32,821 bases of DNA from contig CAKZLY010000029.1 of NCBI GenBank assembly GCA_937127445.1, positions 1 to 32,821 on the forward strand, written 5' to 3'. Made by a program: the position numbers and the translations under genes. The stretch comes from Eximiradius sp. (GTDB lineage: Bacteria; Bacteroidota; Ignavibacteria; Kapaibacteriales; UBA2268). Each line of letters starts with the position of its first letter. The first letter of the stretch is position 1. Positions 24,153 to 32,645 of the stretch are shown here, piece by piece. The notes under the pieces are model-generated. The model did not search any database, had not been told where the DNA came from, and saw only the letters and a program-made list of their open reading frames with translations.

Positions 24153-24243
24153 TAAGATTATTACAAATAGATTAATAAAAGGTAAATCAAACTAATTCGT
24201 CTTAATGTTTTTGGAGTTGTTGAAAAGTTCGAACGGAGGAAAA

Positions 24244-24939
24244 ATGGAAGGGAAAAGTTCGAAAAAGCCTTTGCGTCAGGCACTGGACACAGAAAAAGAT
24301 TTGTTGAACACTTATAAAAAACAGGAGGAACAAAAAGTGAAAAAAATGGGAGAAGAAGCCAAGATAATGGAAGAAAGTCAAAACGAGCAGAACATTGAGA
24401 ATCAAAATGAAAAAAGTCAATCAGAAGATAGTAACAAAAACATTATTGAAGAGCTATCCAATATAGCACTTGATAAAATTTCAGAAATTGAGGAATTAAA
24501 AACAGAGAGAGACTATCTAAAAGACCAGTTGGTAAGGAAAGTCGCCGAAATTGAAAACCAAAGGAAAAGACACCTGAAAGAAAAACAAGAGCTTATAGAT
24601 TTTGCAAACGAGCAACTACTTGGGAAAATGATAGAACTGCTTGATTACTTCGAACAAGCAGTTGATGCATCGAACAAAACGACAGATATTGAAGCATTAC
24701 GCACAGGACTGGAAATGTTATACCAGAAAGCAATAAAATTATTCGAAGAGCAAGGTGTAAAGAAAATGGACGATGCAACTGGCAAGCCATTCGATGTTAA
24801 TTATCACGATGCAATTCTGGCAATGAACTCCGATAAAGAAGAGGGTACTGTCTTGCAAGTGGCACAACCCGGATATATGTATAAGGACAAGGTGCTACGT
24901 CACGCAAGAGTGATCACTTCAAGCAGACAATCTAACTAA
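24244..24939 (+). CDS. grpE: Nucleotide exchange factor GrpE
   Basis: The frame gives 231 residues from the ATG at 24244. After a charged, low-complexity N-terminus (to about 80) there is a long coiled-coil helix (IEELKTERDYLKDQLVRKVAEIENQRKRH) and the C-terminal head with GVKKMDDATGKPFDVNYHDAI and VLRHARVI, the DnaK-facing part. GrpE releases ADP from DnaK. Two starts look usable: ATG 24244 behind GGAGG at short spacing (four bases), and an in-frame GTG at 24337 behind AGGAGG at eight bases, which gives 200 residues, closer to the family's usual length. dnaK and dnaJ are absent here. hslO follows after 13 bases. Confidence 0.92.
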   Translation: MEGKSSKKPLRQALDTEKDLLNTYKKQEEQKVKKMGEEAKIMEESQNEQNIENQNEKSQSEDSNKNIIEELSNIALDKISEIEELKTERDYLKDQLVRKVAEIENQRKRHLKEKQELIDFANEQLLGKMIELLDYFEQAVDASNKTTDIEALRTGLEMLYQKAIKLFEEQGVKKMDDATGKPFDVNYHDAILAMNSDKEEGTVLQVAQPGYMYKDKVLRHARVITSSRQSN

Positions 24940-24952
24940 TAGGTGAAATCGG

Positions 24953-25861
24953 ATGAGTTTACAGAGCATAAAGGAAAGTTTTGCAAAACGAGATAGAGTA
25001 GTACGCGTTCTATCAAAGGACGGGTATTTTAGGGGGGTAGCAATCAAAAATACTAGTATGGCTATTGATGCACAAGCAAGGCACAATTTAGAAGCGATAC
25101 CGGCTTTCTTTCTGGCTAAGACATTAGCAGCTTCAACCTTGCTTTCGGCATTTCTTAAAGGTGAGGAACGAGTAAGCATAGAAATAGACGGTTCGAATTA
25201 TATTAAAAAGATATATTCAGAGTCTATTCAAGTTGGTGAGACGCGTGGATTTATTCGAGTGGATAATAAATATGACAGTAGCAAATTACACTCTATAGAC
25301 GATGTGATAGGAAAAGGTAAAATAAAGGTGTCGAGAATTTTATACAACAAGACCGAACCAATCATAGGTATTACAGAATTAGCACAAGGCGATATTTCAA
25401 CTGATTTAGCATATTATTTCAGCCAATCAGAGCAAATACCATCGGCAGTTCTGTTGGATGCTTCAATAGACGACAACGGGAAAATACTACAATCGGGCGG
25501 ACTAATTATTCAAGCGATGCCACAAGCACCTTTAAAGGAAATAGTAAGAATTACAGAGCAACTTTATGAGCTACCACCAATTTCTCAACTTTTAGCCGAT
25601 GGACACACTATCGAGGGAATTATTCGTCAAGCAACTAATTTTGAGTTCGAAATAGTCAAGCACTCACCAGTTGATTTTTATTGTCGATGTTCGAAGGAGG
25701 GATTTCTCAGTCATCTGGTGGCACTTGGTGCTGACGAAATTCGCAATATGCAAAAGGAAGGGCATACTGAACTGGTATGCCAGTATTGTAGCGAAAAATA
25801 TATTATTGATGATAATGATTTTGCGAGAATATTAATGGAAATTCAGGCAAAAAATAATTAG
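24953..25861 (+). CDS. hslO: Redox-regulated chaperone Hsp33
   Basis: The 302-residue protein has the Hsp33 fold. The C-terminal redox switch is intact: Cys244-x-Cys246 and Cys276-x2-Cys279 bind zinc when reduced, and form disulfides on oxidation that turn on holdase activity. Other signatures are QAGGLIIQ-like QSGGLIIQAMPQAP and the LADGHTIE linker region. It acts in the cytoplasm on proteins unfolding under oxidative stress. It lies between grpE and lon with gaps of 13 and 11 bases, so the three are almost certainly one transcript. The ATG has AGGTG upstream. Confidence 0.97.
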   Translation: MSLQSIKESFAKRDRVVRVLSKDGYFRGVAIKNTSMAIDAQARHNLEAIPAFFLAKTLAASTLLSAFLKGEERVSIEIDGSNYIKKIYSESIQVGETRGFIRVDNKYDSSKLHSIDDVIGKGKIKVSRILYNKTEPIIGITELAQGDISTDLAYYFSQSEQIPSAVLLDASIDDNGKILQSGGLIIQAMPQAPLKEIVRITEQLYELPPISQLLADGHTIEGIIRQATNFEFEIVKHSPVDFYCRCSKEGFLSHLVALGADEIRNMQKEGHTELVCQYCSEKYIIDDNDFARILMEIQAKNN

Positions 25862-25872
25862 GAGTAATCGAT

Positions 25873-28296
25873 ATGGCAAAAAGGAACAAAAAAAGCGAAT
25901 CTACGGAAGAAGCAAGTCTGCCGAAAAAACTACCAATATTACCATTAAGAGATATCATCATTTATCCAAATATGATTTACCCTGTTCTAATCGGCAGGGA
26001 AACTTCGATGAAGGCAGTCAATTACGCATTGGAAAATGAAAAACTAATATTTGTTGTTATACAAAAAGTTCCTGAACAGGACGACCCAACAATCAACGAT
26101 TTGTATGAGCACGGAATTGTTGCTAAAATTTTACAAGTATTGCGCCTTCCTAATAATTTGTATAAGGTGCTTCTGGAAGGACTATATCAGGCAAAAATTG
26201 CAAAAAAAACACGGAAGAAAGAATTTTTAGAAGCAGAAATTGAAAGTGTAAACATACATTACCAGGAAGACAACTCGGAATTGGCAGCGCTTGTTCGATA
26301 TTTATCGGAATCTTTCAAACAATATGTGAACAAGTCAAAAAATTTGCCCTCGGATTTAATTTTAGCATTCGATACAATTGAGGACCCGCTGTATAAATTG
26401 TATTACGCAGCAGCAAACATAAAATCCAAACTACAAGAAAAACAAAAGATATTAGAAGAAACCGATATTAGGCAGAAATTTTTTCTTCTCAATTCGCTTT
26501 TGAGCAATGAGCTTGAATTGCTAAAACTTGAAGAAGAAATAACCAATAAAGTTCACTCTGTAATACAAAAGAATCAGAAAAAATATTATATTCAAGAGCA
26601 AATCCGTACTTTACAACAAGAACTCGAAGAAGACGAAGGATTGCCGCACGAACTACTCGAGATAAAAGAGAAAATAGAAAAAGCAAATCTTCCCAAACAT
26701 GCATATAATAAGGCATTAGAGGAACTCGATAAACTAAAAAAAACACCGACTATGTCCCCAGAATATTCTGTAAATCGAACTTATCTCGATTTGCTTTTAT
26801 CGCTACCCTGGAATGAAAAAACACAGGACAATATAAGTATTGAACACGTAAAAAAAGTGTTGGATGAGGACCATTACGATTTGGAGCGACCAAAAGAAAG
26901 AATACTCGAATATATTGCAATATTGAATTTCACAGGAGCATTGCGTCGCCAGATATTGTGTTTTGTAGGTCCGCCGGGGGTTGGGAAAACCTCGTTAGCA
27001 AAGTCAATTGCTCGTGCTTTGGGACGCAAATTTGTGCGATTTTCGCTGGGTGGAGTTCGCGACGAAGCCGAAATACGCGGTCACAGGAGAACATATGTTG
27101 GTGCATTACCTGGAAAAATTATTCAGTCGATGAAAAAGGCAGGCACAATTAATCCCGTTATTTTGCTTGATGAAATAGACAAAATGTCTATGGATTTTCG
27201 TGGCGACCCATCAGCTGCATTGCTCGAAGTGCTCGATCCCGAACAAAATGCAAATTTCAACGACCATTATTTAGAAGTCGATTATGATTTATCGAACGTT
27301 CTATTTATTACAACTGCGAACGTTAAATACGATATACCAACTCCATTACTTGATAGAATGGAGATAATTGAGCTTAACAGTTATTTAGAAACAGACAAGT
27401 TGCAAATAGCTAAAAGACACATTATTTCAAAATTAATCAATGAATTTGGTCTGGATAAATTAAAAATAAGTTTTATAGACGAAGCTATTTTAAAAATCAT
27501 TCGTCAATATACGAGGGAGGCAGGAGTTCGCAATTTAGAACGCGAGATAGCATCAGTGTTACGAAAACTGGCAAAAGAAATTGTATCGAGTGTTGCAAAT
27601 TATTCAAATGAAGTCAAAGAATGGGTGCCAATACAAGAAAATAAAGAAATATTGAAAAAATTGTCAGGTAAAAAATATAGAGTAACACCTGATACAATTG
27701 AAAAATTCCTGAAAGCACCAATATATAAAGAAAAATCTGATGAATTGAACGACAAAGTTGGAGTAGTAACGGGTCTTGCTTGGACAAGTGTAGGAGGAGA
27801 TGTAATGCCGGTGGAAGTTACAATTATGCCCTCGACATCAGAAAAAATCACGTTGACTGGTAAGTTAGGCGAAGTAATGAAAGAATCGGCTGTTGCAGCA
27901 CTTTCGTTTATCCGTTCAAACTATAAAGCGTTGGGATTGAATGAGAATTTCTATAAGAAAAAGGAAATTCATATTCACGTACCAGAAGGTGCTATACCCA
28001 AAGATGGGCCATCGGCAGGCATAACAATTGCAATGTCTATAATATCTGCTGTTAGTGGCAAGCCTGCAAACGGGAAAGTAGCAATGACCGGAGAAATCAC
28101 TTTGCGTGGAAATATTTTGCCAATCGGTGGATTGAAAGAGAAACTGTTAGCTGCGAAGCGATTTGGAATTACAAAAGTTATTATTCCAGATGAAAACTGG
28201 CGAGAAATACAGGATTTTCCTGAAGAAATCACTAGTTCACTGGAAATAATTCCAGTCAAAACATTATGGGATGCACTTCCAGTTGTTTTTAATTAA
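25873..28296 (+). CDS. lon: ATP-dependent protease Lon (LonA)
   Basis: The 807-residue protein is full-length LonA: N-terminal substrate domain (about 15-215, LPILPLRDIIIYPNMIYPV), coiled-coil linker, AAA+ module with Walker A GPPGVGKTS (from residue 366) and Walker B VILLDEIDK (about 429), and C-terminal protease domain with the Ser714-Lys757 dyad (PKDGPSAG and GGLKEK). It degrades damaged and short-lived regulatory proteins. GGAG lies eight bases before the ATG. It is the last gene of the grpE-hslO-lon unit and ends at a bidirectional terminator. Confidence 0.98.
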   Translation: MAKRNKKSESTEEASLPKKLPILPLRDIIIYPNMIYPVLIGRETSMKAVNYALENEKLIFVVIQKVPEQDDPTINDLYEHGIVAKILQVLRLPNNLYKVLLEGLYQAKIAKKTRKKEFLEAEIESVNIHYQEDNSELAALVRYLSESFKQYVNKSKNLPSDLILAFDTIEDPLYKLYYAAANIKSKLQEKQKILEETDIRQKFFLLNSLLSNELELLKLEEEITNKVHSVIQKNQKKYYIQEQIRTLQQELEEDEGLPHELLEIKEKIEKANLPKHAYNKALEELDKLKKTPTMSPEYSVNRTYLDLLLSLPWNEKTQDNISIEHVKKVLDEDHYDLERPKERILEYIAILNFTGALRRQILCFVGPPGVGKTSLAKSIARALGRKFVRFSLGGVRDEAEIRGHRRTYVGALPGKIIQSMKKAGTINPVILLDEIDKMSMDFRGDPSAALLEVLDPEQNANFNDHYLEVDYDLSNVLFITTANVKYDIPTPLLDRMEIIELNSYLETDKLQIAKRHIISKLINEFGLDKLKISFIDEAILKIIRQYTREAGVRNLEREIASVLRKLAKEIVSSVANYSNEVKEWVPIQENKEILKKLSGKKYRVTPDTIEKFLKAPIYKEKSDELNDKVGVVTGLAWTSVGGDVMPVEVTIMPSTSEKITLTGKLGEVMKESAVAALSFIRSNYKALGLNENFYKKKEIHIHVPEGAIPKDGPSAGITIAMSIISAVSGKPANGKVAMTGEITLRGNILPIGGLKEKLLAAKRFGITKVIIPDENWREIQDFPEEITSSLEIIPVKTLWDALPVVFN

Positions 28297-30385: not shown

Positions 30386-30416
30386 TTGAAAATAATACAT
30401 ATTGGCATAATATTTG
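30386..30416 (+). promoter_or_regulatory. Candidate promoter of the coiled-coil/barrel and TPR-LRR gene pair
   Basis: TTG (30386-30388), 20 bases, then AATATTTG (30409-30416), seven of eight matching TAnnTTTG. The spacing equals that of both tRNA promoters. The ATG of the first gene follows 42 bases later; the longer frame starting at 30414 would overlap the -7 box. Confidence 0.5.
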
Positions 30417-30458
30417 TGTTTGATAGAAATAAATAACAATCATAATTATGGAGAAACA

Positions 30459-31625
30459 ATGAGAACAGTATTTTTTGTATTTATATTTATTCTAACTTTC
30501 AAGATTTACGCAGCAGAGCCAATAGTTGAGCTATCACCTTTGCCAGGCAACAACGAGCTTGAACTATATGAAGAAAGCGATGGGTTGTTTGCTCTGAAAA
30601 TTCTTGAATATTACAGAATAGCAGTTCTATATGAAGCGCAACTTCGTTTAATTGGTTTGCAGCCAGTCAATCCAACATCAATCCCAACGCTTGATGAACT
30701 TACCGATGCTGACATAAGAACTTTGCGTCGTTATTATAACCAGGCAGATGGGTTACGTAGGCAGGTGCTGGAAGCCCCCGATGCACCATACCATAAGAAA
30801 ATAGTTGAGCTAAGAGAGAAAGTCGAGAAAATGAACAATGATAATTTCATATTACAAGAGCAACTACATCGTCAGAATTTAGAGTTACTTTCGGCGAATT
30901 TCTACAGAAGCCGTTACCGCGAAATGATTACTCAAATTGACAGTTTACGAAACGAGATTGACAAGATGTTCTTCGATTGTCGTCAGCAAGCGTGGGAACA
31001 GTCGGAACGAATTCGTCAAGCATACGACAATTGGAAAAATAGTGCGTCGATTCTATCAATTGCATTGACGGGCAATTATTTAGATTATAATGATGAACGA
31101 ATCGATGCGAATATTTCTCCGGGGATTGCGTTGGTATTTAATCCCAGTCCGATTTTTGGAATGGGGAAAATCCTTGATATTTGGACCGAATATACATATC
31201 AGCTTCTTGAAGCAGAAAAAATTTATCAAAATAGACCCATAAATATGGAATATAAAACTGATTATATATCAACTGGAATAAATTTAAATATACCGCTTTC
31301 TGATGTAATGAAAATAGAAAATTTTTATTTAGGACTGAAAGGAGGTTATGGATTTTTCTGGGGTTCTGCTCGCTTGCCAAATACAGAATTGCCATCGAAA
31401 AAATGGCAGGGGCAAACAATAAGGATGGAGCTTATGGCAACAAATTTCAGCCGTTTTCATTTTCCGATAGGGTTTTTCGCTGCGTTTAATTTCAATCATT
31501 ATTCAAAGGATTTGGTATTTCCTGCGTTTGGCGGAGAAATAAATCTTGGGCGTCCGTGGACTACAAATTTCCAGCTTGGAGTACGTTTTGCATTATGGCA
31601 AACAGTTTCGACCACCATATATTAA
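30459..31625 (+). CDS. Predicted exported protein with coiled coil and C-terminal outer-membrane barrel-like domain, function unknown
   Basis: I do not recognise a named family. The 388-residue product begins with a signal peptide (RTVFFVFIFILTFKIYAA before EP). A helical region follows (about 40-205), with a probable coiled coil (KIVELREKVEKMNNDNFILQ and on to QIDSLRNEIDKM). From about 210 it changes to alternating strands with aromatic girdles (SIALTGNYLDYND, GIALVFNPSP, NFYLGLKGGYGFFWG, FPIGFFAAFNFNH, FQLGVRFALW) and ends in Tyr, as outer-membrane barrels often do. The barrel would have about eight strands. GGAGA lies six bases before the ATG at 30459. The TPR-LRR gene follows nine bases after the stop, so the two are likely co-expressed. 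The residue pattern supports envelope location only. Confidence 0.8.
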   Translation: MRTVFFVFIFILTFKIYAAEPIVELSPLPGNNELELYEESDGLFALKILEYYRIAVLYEAQLRLIGLQPVNPTSIPTLDELTDADIRTLRRYYNQADGLRRQVLEAPDAPYHKKIVELREKVEKMNNDNFILQEQLHRQNLELLSANFYRSRYREMITQIDSLRNEIDKMFFDCRQQAWEQSERIRQAYDNWKNSASILSIALTGNYLDYNDERIDANISPGIALVFNPSPIFGMGKILDIWTEYTYQLLEAEKIYQNRPINMEYKTDYISTGINLNIPLSDVMKIENFYLGLKGGYGFFWGSARLPNTELPSKKWQGQTIRMELMATNFSRFHFPIGFFAAFNFNHYSKDLVFPAFGGEINLGRPWTTNFQLGVRFALWQTVSTTIY

Positions 31626-31634
31626 GGTGTGAAA

Positions 31635-32645
31635 ATGAAAAAGTATATTTTATTAATTATGGCTTTATGTTTGATTTCATTTTCAAATGATAATCAAAGG
31701 ATAAAGAGCTTAGAAACAAAATCAAAAAGATACATTGAACAAGGGAACTACAAAAAAGCGATCTCGACACTTGAAGAAGCCAATCGGATGAAATTCGCAA
31801 GCCAACAGTCGGCAAATTCGGCAAGCAATAGCAATGTTTCGCGAGCATCGCGATTTGTAAAGCTTGCACAAAGTTATATAAACAATGGAGACTTCGGCAA
31901 AGCCTTTGAAAATTTAGAGAAGGCAGGTAAATTAATTGGGAAAAATCGAAGCTGGGAAGCGCAATATTGGTCTGCTTCCATAGACGAGGTATACGGAAAT
32001 ATCTACAAAAAGATAAATATCACAGACAAAGCAAGGGAATATTTGAATTCAGCGCTTAGTAAATTTCAAAAACTAATTGCTATGCCCGGTGGTAGTCAGG
32101 ATGCAGTAAAGATATTAATTGCAAATCTGGAAAATGAGATAAATGGGTTACCTTTGATTACCAATAATTCAGTCGTTCTCAACTTTGACAATCAGAAATT
32201 ACGAGATTTACCGGCAAATTTACCGCAGAACGTTGAAAACATAAGTATTTCATCGAATAGATTGAGAAATTTCCCGCAAGGGATTACAAATTTCAAGCAG
32301 CTCAAAGTATTAAATTTGTCAAATAATTCAATAAGTGAAGTGAAATTTGATTTTGGGAATACACCGCAGCTTCGTTGGTTAGATTTATCTAATAATAAAA
32401 TAAAATCACTTGATGAAACTATTGGCAAGGCAAGCAATCTCGAATATTTAGATTTGTCCGACAATAAGCTCAAAACAATACCTATGAGCATAACCAACTT
32501 GAAACGCTTAAAAGTATTGAATTTGAAGAACAACAGATTACCTTTTTCGAGCATAAAAACAATTTTACAATCGCTTCCGAACACTAATGTATTGCACGAT
32601 GAGTATCTACAAAAAGGTGAGGAAAGCGAGTATAAAGGTAGTTAG
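31635..32645 (+). CDS. Exported TPR and leucine-rich-repeat protein
   Basis: The 336-residue product starts with a hydrophobic leader (KKYILLIMALCLISFS). TPR-like helical pairs come next (about 24-175: RYIEQGNYKKAISTLEEANR, SYINNGDFGKAFENLEKAGK, and AREYLNSALSKFQKL). Five leucine-rich repeats of 23 residues follow in register, each with the LxxLxLSxN core, preceded by a partial one (VVLNFDNQKLRDLP). The repeats resemble the ROCO/Shoc2-like bacterial type. Both repeat kinds are protein-binding scaffolds, so a binding role is inferred; no catalytic domain is seen. A GTG at 31629 is an alternative start two codons earlier; ATG 31635 has AAGG at better spacing. It lies directly behind the barrel-like gene. 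Confidence 0.85.
   Translation: MKKYILLIMALCLISFSNDNQRIKSLETKSKRYIEQGNYKKAISTLEEANRMKFASQQSANSASNSNVSRASRFVKLAQSYINNGDFGKAFENLEKAGKLIGKNRSWEAQYWSASIDEVYGNIYKKINITDKAREYLNSALSKFQKLIAMPGGSQDAVKILIANLENEINGLPLITNNSVVLNFDNQKLRDLPANLPQNVENISISSNRLRNFPQGITNFKQLKVLNLSNNSISEVKFDFGNTPQLRWLDLSNNKIKSLDETIGKASNLEYLDLSDNKLKTIPMSITNLKRLKVLNLKNNRLPFSSIKTILQSLPNTNVLHDEYLQKGEESEYKGS

What the first reader, a model, noticed from the sequence alone, without database searches (positions are those of the whole stretch)
30386..32645. Unrecognised envelope pair: coiled-coil/barrel protein plus TPR-LRR scaffold
Two exported proteins nine bases apart share one candidate promoter. The first joins a periplasmic coiled coil to a small barrel-like domain, a layout reminiscent of peptidoglycan-to-outer-membrane linkers; the second has TPRs followed by five exact 23-residue leucine-rich repeats. 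I know no described system with this combination, which makes it the best candidate here for something new.
Basis: partly seen in the sequence, partly recalled or inferred. Interest (0 to 1): 0.5.

Follow-up and report, generated by a model that had tools for sequence, protein, structure and literature searches.

The report
Outer-membrane barrel with TPR-LRR partner
Two neighbouring genes, conserved side by side across a little-studied group of bacteria, encode a likely outer-membrane barrel with a long internal stalk and an exported repeat protein that may dock onto it; together they look like an undescribed cell-envelope assembly whose job is still unknown.

Summary
Gene A (30459-31625) encodes an exported 388-residue protein: helical N-domain, long coil-like helix, predicted 8-stranded outer-membrane barrel (AlphaFold pLDDT 81.9; Z 16.7 to OmpW). 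Gene B, nine bases downstream, encodes an exported TPR protein with five leucine-rich repeats 23 residues apart. Pairing goes far beyond one strain: of 41 A-like loci in 39 of 123 genomes of the order (Kapabacteria relatives), 38 have B directly downstream; the next most frequent neighbour recurs in 6 of 38. All 36 untruncated A proteins with the N-domain have B; three coil-barrel proteins without it lack B. B's TPR module also occurs near or in barrel-like proteins: before a different barrel-like gene in family f7 (8 of 8 loci) and in one chain with a barrel-like domain in 11 genomes, though also in proteins with no barrel in sight. I infer an outer-membrane-anchored periplasmic adaptor: A as anchor and stalk, B as docked recognition unit. 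Complex formation, localisation and ligand are untested. A peptidoglycan linker is not supported: no known peptidoglycan-binding domain was found, and the genome has 20 OmpA-domain matches. A reaches no Pfam or NCBIfam cut-off.

The parts
30459..31625 (+). Gene A: exported 388-aa protein; signal peptide about 1-18, N-terminal helical domain about 19-104, coil-like helix 109-193, 8-stranded outer-membrane-type barrel about 196-381
   Evidence: ORF; AF2 model pLDDT 81.9, pTM 0.48; Foldseek and VIA matches to OmpA, OmpW, NspA; no Pfam or NCBIfam match over cut-off
30513..30770 (+). Part of A (residues 19-104): conserved mature N-terminus plus helical N-domain; present in all 36 untruncated A proteins that have B, not recognised in 3 of 3 coil-barrel proteins without B
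31044..31601 (+). Part of A (residues 196-381): predicted 8-stranded barrel
31635..32645 (+). Gene B: exported 336-aa TPR-LRR protein
   Evidence: ORF; Pfam LRR_8 9e-21, TPR_2 1.2e-8; AF2 model pLDDT 84.3, pTM 0.50; LRR Z 22.5 to a Leptospira LRR protein
31839..32105 (+). Part of B: TPR signature module (seven invariant positions R, K, L, Y, W, E, A over 18 rows), found also in TPR-coil-LRR, TPR-barrel and other proteins of relatives
32232..32540 (+). Part of B: five LRR motifs at exact 23-residue spacing (residues 200, 223, 246, 269, 292)
30386..30413 (+). Candidate promoter, not better than chance

Best explanation
A and B are the two halves of an outer-membrane-anchored periplasmic adaptor. 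SHOWN by computation: A combines a conserved helical N-domain, a coil-like helix of variable length and a predicted 8-stranded barrel of outer-membrane type; B has a signal-peptide-like start, TPRs and LRRs; the genes are kept as an A-then-B pair; the same TPR module is in part of its other occurrences tied to barrel-like proteins, in cis or in trans. INFERRED: A inserts its barrel in the outer membrane with both ends in the periplasm; its stalk holds the N-domain away from the membrane; B docks on A, most simply through its TPR groove on the conserved acidic, proline-containing mature N-terminus and N-domain of A; B's LRR face then captures another periplasmic or membrane protein and holds it at the outer membrane. 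The ligand is not known.
For: Pair: B directly downstream of A in 38 of 41 A-like loci in 39 genomes; order A then B in all 38; gap 24 nt or less in 19 of 20 measured, 204 in one; other neighbours not conserved (best 6 of 38). Reciprocal: 41 of 123 genomes have B at E <= 1e-40, of which 38 have A beside it. N-domain and B go together: 36 of 36 untruncated N-domain proteins have B, 0 of 3 without it do. The coil is a variable spacer: about 16 residues in L082/L083, which keep N-domain, barrel and B. Fold. TPR module tied to barrels: in f7 a TPR-LRR gene lies directly before a different barrel-like gene in 8 of 8; one-chain TPR plus barrel-like proteins in 11 genomes; TPR homology between B and six of these fusions 99.8% probability. 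Conservation in A: mature N-terminus 0.45 (211 of 496 pairs measurable), N-domain 0.31, barrel 0.24, coil 0.17 mean pairwise identity over 32 sequences.
Against: No A-B contact was tested; no complex was predicted (two single-chain jobs only). The TPR module is not confined to barrels: of 31 distinct TPR-module proteins looked at outside the pair and the f7 TPR-LRR genes, 11 have a barrel-like domain in the chain, 1 is cut off by the contig end, 10 lie next to a TPR-barrel gene, and 9 show no barrel in the chain and none that I noticed beside it. The fusions' barrels show no sequence relation to A's; their barrel nature rests on residue alternation in the 6 tested (z 1.9 to 3.3; A's barrel 2.6; coil, TPR and LRR controls -1.1 to -2.5) and on an aromatic last residue in all 11. 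The f7 barrel-like protein has no match in the own genome and alternation z of 1.8 and 2.9 in the two tested. In f7, LRR and TPR occur without A's N-domain. Distance correlations gave no support for TPR-to-N-domain contact (r 0.45, against 0.74 for N-domain to LRR and 0.69 for TPR to barrel; phylogeny not removed). 19 of the 54 f1 genomes shown have no A match, so A looks dispensable.
Confidence: 0.45

Rival explanations
1. A is a general outer-membrane-to-cell-wall tether, with B helping to grip peptidoglycan.
For: Stalk plus barrel layout resembles OmpM (outline and abstract; passages) and SlpA (outline and abstract); one copy in the own genome.
Against: No OmpA or SLH domain found in A; 20 OmpA-domain matches in the own genome and matches in 45 of 45 genomes searched; spacer of 16 to 93 residues in A proteins with B; 8 strands predicted instead of a large barrel.
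Confidence: 0.15
2. A and B work in outer-membrane protein assembly or secretion: B as a TPR chaperone or adaptor that delivers clients, A as its docking site.
For: TPR proteins work at barrels in known machines (recalled, e.g. BamD); weak NCBIfam matches of B to PilW 5.1e-5 and BepA 0.026, both far below cut-off.
Against: No neighbour cluster recurs in more than 6 of 38 loci (neighbours were clustered, not all annotated); patchy distribution, 39 of 123 genomes of the order, does not suit a core machine.
Confidence: 0.15
3. A and B are merely co-transcribed and act separately; B's LRR may even act at the cell surface as a binding protein.
For: LRR closest in fold to Leptospira LRR proteins; the TPR module also occurs in proteins without an evident barrel.
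Against: Pair kept in 38 loci while flanks change; N-domain and B present or absent together; one-chain TPR-barrel proteins.
Confidence: 0.18

Closest known systems
OmpA / OmpW / NspA type 8-stranded outer-membrane barrels
   Same: Barrel fold: Z 16.7 to OmpW over 162 residues, rmsd 2.7; Z 15.6 to OmpA; Z 15.5 to NspA
   Different: A carries a helical N-domain and coil before the barrel; no OmpA peptidoglycan-binding domain was found in it
OmpM (Veillonella) and SlpA (Deinococcus) stalked porins
   Same: N-terminal domain, periplasmic coil, C-terminal barrel
   Different: Those use SLH domains and trimeric barrels (OmpM: section headings and passages; SlpA: homotrimers of 30-stranded barrels, abstract); OmpM is reported absent from the Gracilicutes, the group that includes Bacteroidetes (passages); no TPR-LRR partner was seen in the parts I read
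CpoB (YbgF) of the Tol-Pal system
   Same: Envelope-coordinating protein (abstract); coiled coil with TPR (recalled), as in the f7 form
   Different: No LRR (recalled); here partnered with a barrel protein
PgaA, BcsC, AlgK/AlgE type TPR-barrel exporters of exopolysaccharide
   Same: TPR domain with an outer-membrane barrel (search listing and starts of abstracts)
   Different: Those have large pores (recalled); A is predicted with 8 strands
Leptospira LRR proteins of known structure
   Same: LRR fold of B, Z 22.5, rmsd 1.7 over 143 residues
   Different: B has an exported TPR module and a conserved barrel-gene partner

Membership tests
OmpA family (barrel plus peptidoglycan-binding domain) | 8-stranded outer-membrane barrel | tested here: met
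   AF2 model and structural matches; predicted only
OmpA family (barrel plus peptidoglycan-binding domain) | OmpA domain PF00691 | tested here: not met
   No such Pfam match in A at E 1 or in any of the 20 aligned members at E 0.01
OmpM/SlpA stalked porins | SLH domain at the N-terminus | tested here: not met
   No SLH match in Pfam
OmpM/SlpA stalked porins | Trimeric coiled coil and large barrel | tested here: inconclusive
   Barrel predicted with 8 long strands; oligomeric state not testable here
CpoB | Coiled coil plus TPR in one exported protein | tested here: not met
   The window's B has TPR plus LRR, no coil between them in the model; the f7 form does have one
CpoB | Gene in a tol-pal locus | tested here: inconclusive
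   None of the ten upstream proteins scanned is Tol or Pal; the contig ends after B; neighbours of the other loci were clustered, not annotated
TPR-barrel exopolysaccharide exporters | Large export barrel | tested here: not met
   8 long strands in the model; predicted only
TPR-barrel exopolysaccharide exporters | Polysaccharide synthesis genes alongside | tested here: inconclusive
   None among the ten upstream proteins scanned; no neighbour cluster beyond 6 of 38 loci, clusters not all annotated
Leucine-rich repeat proteins | Tandem LRRs of regular length | tested here: met
   LRR_8 9e-21; five motifs 23 apart
TPR proteins | TPR motif over cut-off | tested here: met
   TPR_2 34.8 bits, cut-off 27

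The most novel reading that the evidence does not exclude
The order of Kapabacteria relatives has an undescribed modular envelope system: an exported TPR module that is repeatedly hung on an outer-membrane barrel, either in one chain (TPR-linker-barrel) or as two genes, with the coil on the barrel side (f1/f9, with a dedicated N-domain) or on the TPR-LRR side (f7). The LRR form is a periplasmic receptor that positions partner proteins at the outer membrane.
Probability: 0.25. Interest if true: 0.65.

Novelty: new variant of a known kind. Interest (0 to 1): 0.46.

Why it matters
Little was found in print on how these bacteria build their envelope: a search for Kapabacteria with outer membrane gave 4 papers, none with either term in title or abstract. 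A barrel-stalk protein with a constant TPR-LRR partner would add a two-protein adaptor to the known stalked barrels. The natural rearrangements (coil on the barrel protein or on the TPR-LRR protein, and one-chain versions) give a direct, testable prediction that TPR and barrel proteins work together.

Tried and rejected
Rejected: a strain-specific oddity (38 loci with the pair). Rejected: a chance open frame (A homologues down to 22% identity keep the layout). Not supported: a special promoter. Not supported: sequence kinship of A's N-domain with the TPR module (hhalign probability 1.4) or of A with the one-chain TPR-barrel proteins (0.4). Phylum-wide search with A (395 genomes sampled, at most 4 candidates scored in each) gave 11 genomes: 7 of f1, 2 of f9, and two short coil matches (E 6.7e-6 and 8.9e-4) that I take as chance. 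PDB sequence search with A's profile gave 11 matches, all at E 0.22 or worse and mostly in the coil region. Weak Pfam matches in A1 members (YPEB_N in 3 of 20, best 0.0025; DUF1978 in 1 of 20) were not followed. The structure list for B is filled by LRR proteins, so its TPR half was barely tested. Distance correlations (32 sequences after dropping 4 near-duplicates) are confounded by phylogeny and not used as proof. The f7 barrel-like protein matches no Pfam family and NCBIfam PopA only below cut-off (1.5e-5). B of L006 is incomplete at a contig end but counted as present.

Full report
What is there. The window is the whole of contig C29 of a 2.45-Mb, 99% complete genome. Gene A (30459-31625) and gene B (31635-32645) lie 9 bases apart on the + strand, after a divergent NAD(P)H-hydrate dehydratase gene. 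A has one copy in the genome. A reaches no Pfam or NCBIfam cut-off; among the 20 aligned members only YPEB_N (3 of 20) and DUF1978 (1 of 20) appear at E 0.01.

Anatomy of A. An AlphaFold model on a 20-row alignment (pLDDT 81.9, pTM 0.48) shows helices 31-39, 41-64 and 86-104, one long helix 109-193, then eight long and three short strands between 197 and 381. Residues 195-381 match 8-stranded outer-membrane barrels: OmpW Z 16.7 (rmsd 2.7, 162 aligned), OmpA Z 15.6, NspA Z 15.5 (Foldseek best 2.6e-6 to OmpA). The last residue is aromatic in 24 of 41 A-like proteins, and one of the last three in 29 of 41. With eight strands and a signal peptide, both ends should be in the periplasm (inference).

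Anatomy of B. The model (pLDDT 84.3, pTM 0.50) has a helical N-half and an LRR C-half. LRR motifs sit at residues 200, 223, 246, 269 and 292; the closest solved LRR domains are Leptospira proteins (Z 22.5, rmsd 1.7 over 143 residues). The window genus has an additional N-terminal stretch (about residues 20-60), missing from most other rows. A lipobox-like motif was seen in 1 of 38 B proteins (L101), so B is most likely soluble.

Pairing. With A's profile, 39 of 123 genomes of the order match: 35 of family f1 and 4 of f9, at 41 loci. B lies directly downstream in 38. The three exceptions are L079 (G012) and the extra copies L080 (G452) and L081 (G022); the last two genomes also hold a proper pair (L082, L083). 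With B's profile at E <= 1e-40, 41 of 123 genomes match: the same 38, and three of family f7. Among all genes around the 38 pairs, the next most frequent cluster occurs in 6 loci (flanks differ in length and some contigs end early). The pair keeps together while its surroundings change. It is not universal: 19 of the 54 f1 genomes shown have no A match.

Which part of A goes with B. Aligning 39 A-like proteins (2 truncated ones dropped) gives an N-domain of 73-92 residues, a spacer of 16-93 and a barrel of 178-201 in the 36 that have B. The three without B lack the recognisable N-domain (full translations; profile matches start at position 97 or later) but have coil and barrel. L082 and L083 have almost no coil but keep N-domain (weak profile match, positions 45-74 and 47-74), barrel and B. 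So the coil is an adjustable spacer and the N-domain is the part that travels with B; with only three exceptions this is suggestive, not proof. The mature N-terminus and N-domain are also the best conserved parts of A (0.45 and 0.31 mean pairwise identity, against 0.24 for the barrel and 0.17 for the coil; 32 sequences).

The TPR module elsewhere. An alignment of only the TPR part (18 rows; seven invariant positions) matches 53 of 123 genomes of the order at E <= 1e-8 and 20 of 395 sampled phylum-wide (at most 13 candidates scored in each). In f7, a TPR-LRR gene lies directly before a different barrel-like gene in 8 of 8 genomes that have the latter, of 10 searched; in one (L118) only the LRR part is on the contig stretch. 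The order is thus TPR-LRR first, barrel second, the reverse of A-B. In the three read in full the coil is in the TPR-LRR protein. In 11 genomes (3 of f1, 8 of f7) the TPR module is in one chain with a linker or coil and a C-terminal domain that ends in an aromatic residue; 6 of the 11 were tested for barrel-like alternation, on a hydrophobicity scale of my own making with Tyr and Trp raised (z 1.9 to 3.3, A's barrel 2.6, three non-barrel controls negative). The TPR parts are homologous (99.8%); the barrels are not detectably related. Against the rule: of 31 distinct TPR-module proteins looked at have no barrel in the chain and none that I noticed beside them (L170, two in L171, L173, L176, L177, L185, L186, L187). 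Two f1 genomes with one-chain proteins (G015, G023) lack the A-B pair, while G020 has both, so one does not simply replace the other. Outside the order the module is found with a Ppx/GppA-like domain (L176, Pfam 0.0015, below cut-off; L177 by eye).

How it most likely works. The constant A-B pairing and the recurrent, though not exclusive, link between this TPR module and barrels are the main arguments that B works at A. I propose that A anchors and B recognises: the barrel sits in the outer membrane, the stalk sets the distance, the N-domain is the docking site, and the LRR face binds a further protein. Steps from docking onwards are inference. A general cell-wall tether is less likely, since no known peptidoglycan-binding domain was found in A and the genome has 20 OmpA-domain matches. 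An export pore for polysaccharide is unlikely with eight strands.

Known or new. Stalked barrels (OmpM: outline, abstract and passages; SlpA: outline, abstract and the opening of the text), the TPR protein CpoB (outline and abstract) and TPR-barrel exporters (search listing) are the nearest kinds. Searches for LRR with TPR, periplasm and Bacteroidetes/Bacteroidota, and for Kapabacteria with LRR or outer membrane, listed no paper that by title and start of abstract describes such a pair (0; 0; 15 of 24 listed; 4). I call it a new variant of a known kind: barrel, coil, TPR and LRR are all known, the combination and its conserved partnership are not, as far as these searches reach.

Noticed in passing
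window 24205-28296 +: grpE, hsp33 and lon follow each other on one strand: a compact protein-quality-control run.
   Followed up: no
L167, L168, L169, L172, L174, L175, L178, L180-L183: One-chain proteins: TPR signature module, linker or coil, C-terminal barrel-like domain ending in an aromatic residue; in f7 and L172 next to a second TPR-module gene.
   Followed up: partly
L176:1987-3381 and L177:3181-4629: The same TPR module with a Ppx/GppA-like domain in other families of the phylum.
   Followed up: partly
L170:3240-4151, L171:194-1459, L173:2894-3565, L185, L186, L187: TPR-module proteins without a barrel in the chain and with no barrel neighbour noticed; most end in or near a coil.
   Followed up: no
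L079, L080, L081: Coil-plus-barrel relatives of A without its N-domain and without a TPR-LRR neighbour.
   Followed up: partly
L082:1322-2212 and L083:2992-3882: A proteins that have lost nearly the whole coil but keep N-domain, barrel and the B gene.
   Followed up: yes
own genome G000 and relatives: 20 OmpA-domain (PF00691) matches and 8 LRR matches (B included) in a 2.45-Mb genome; up to 60 OmpA-domain and 48 LRR matches in relatives.
   Followed up: no
L167:2296-3534 and equivalents in f7: TPR module plus coil plus an unknown C-terminal domain ending in a conserved 'EGAYFC' region, directly before the one-chain TPR-barrel gene.
   Followed up: no
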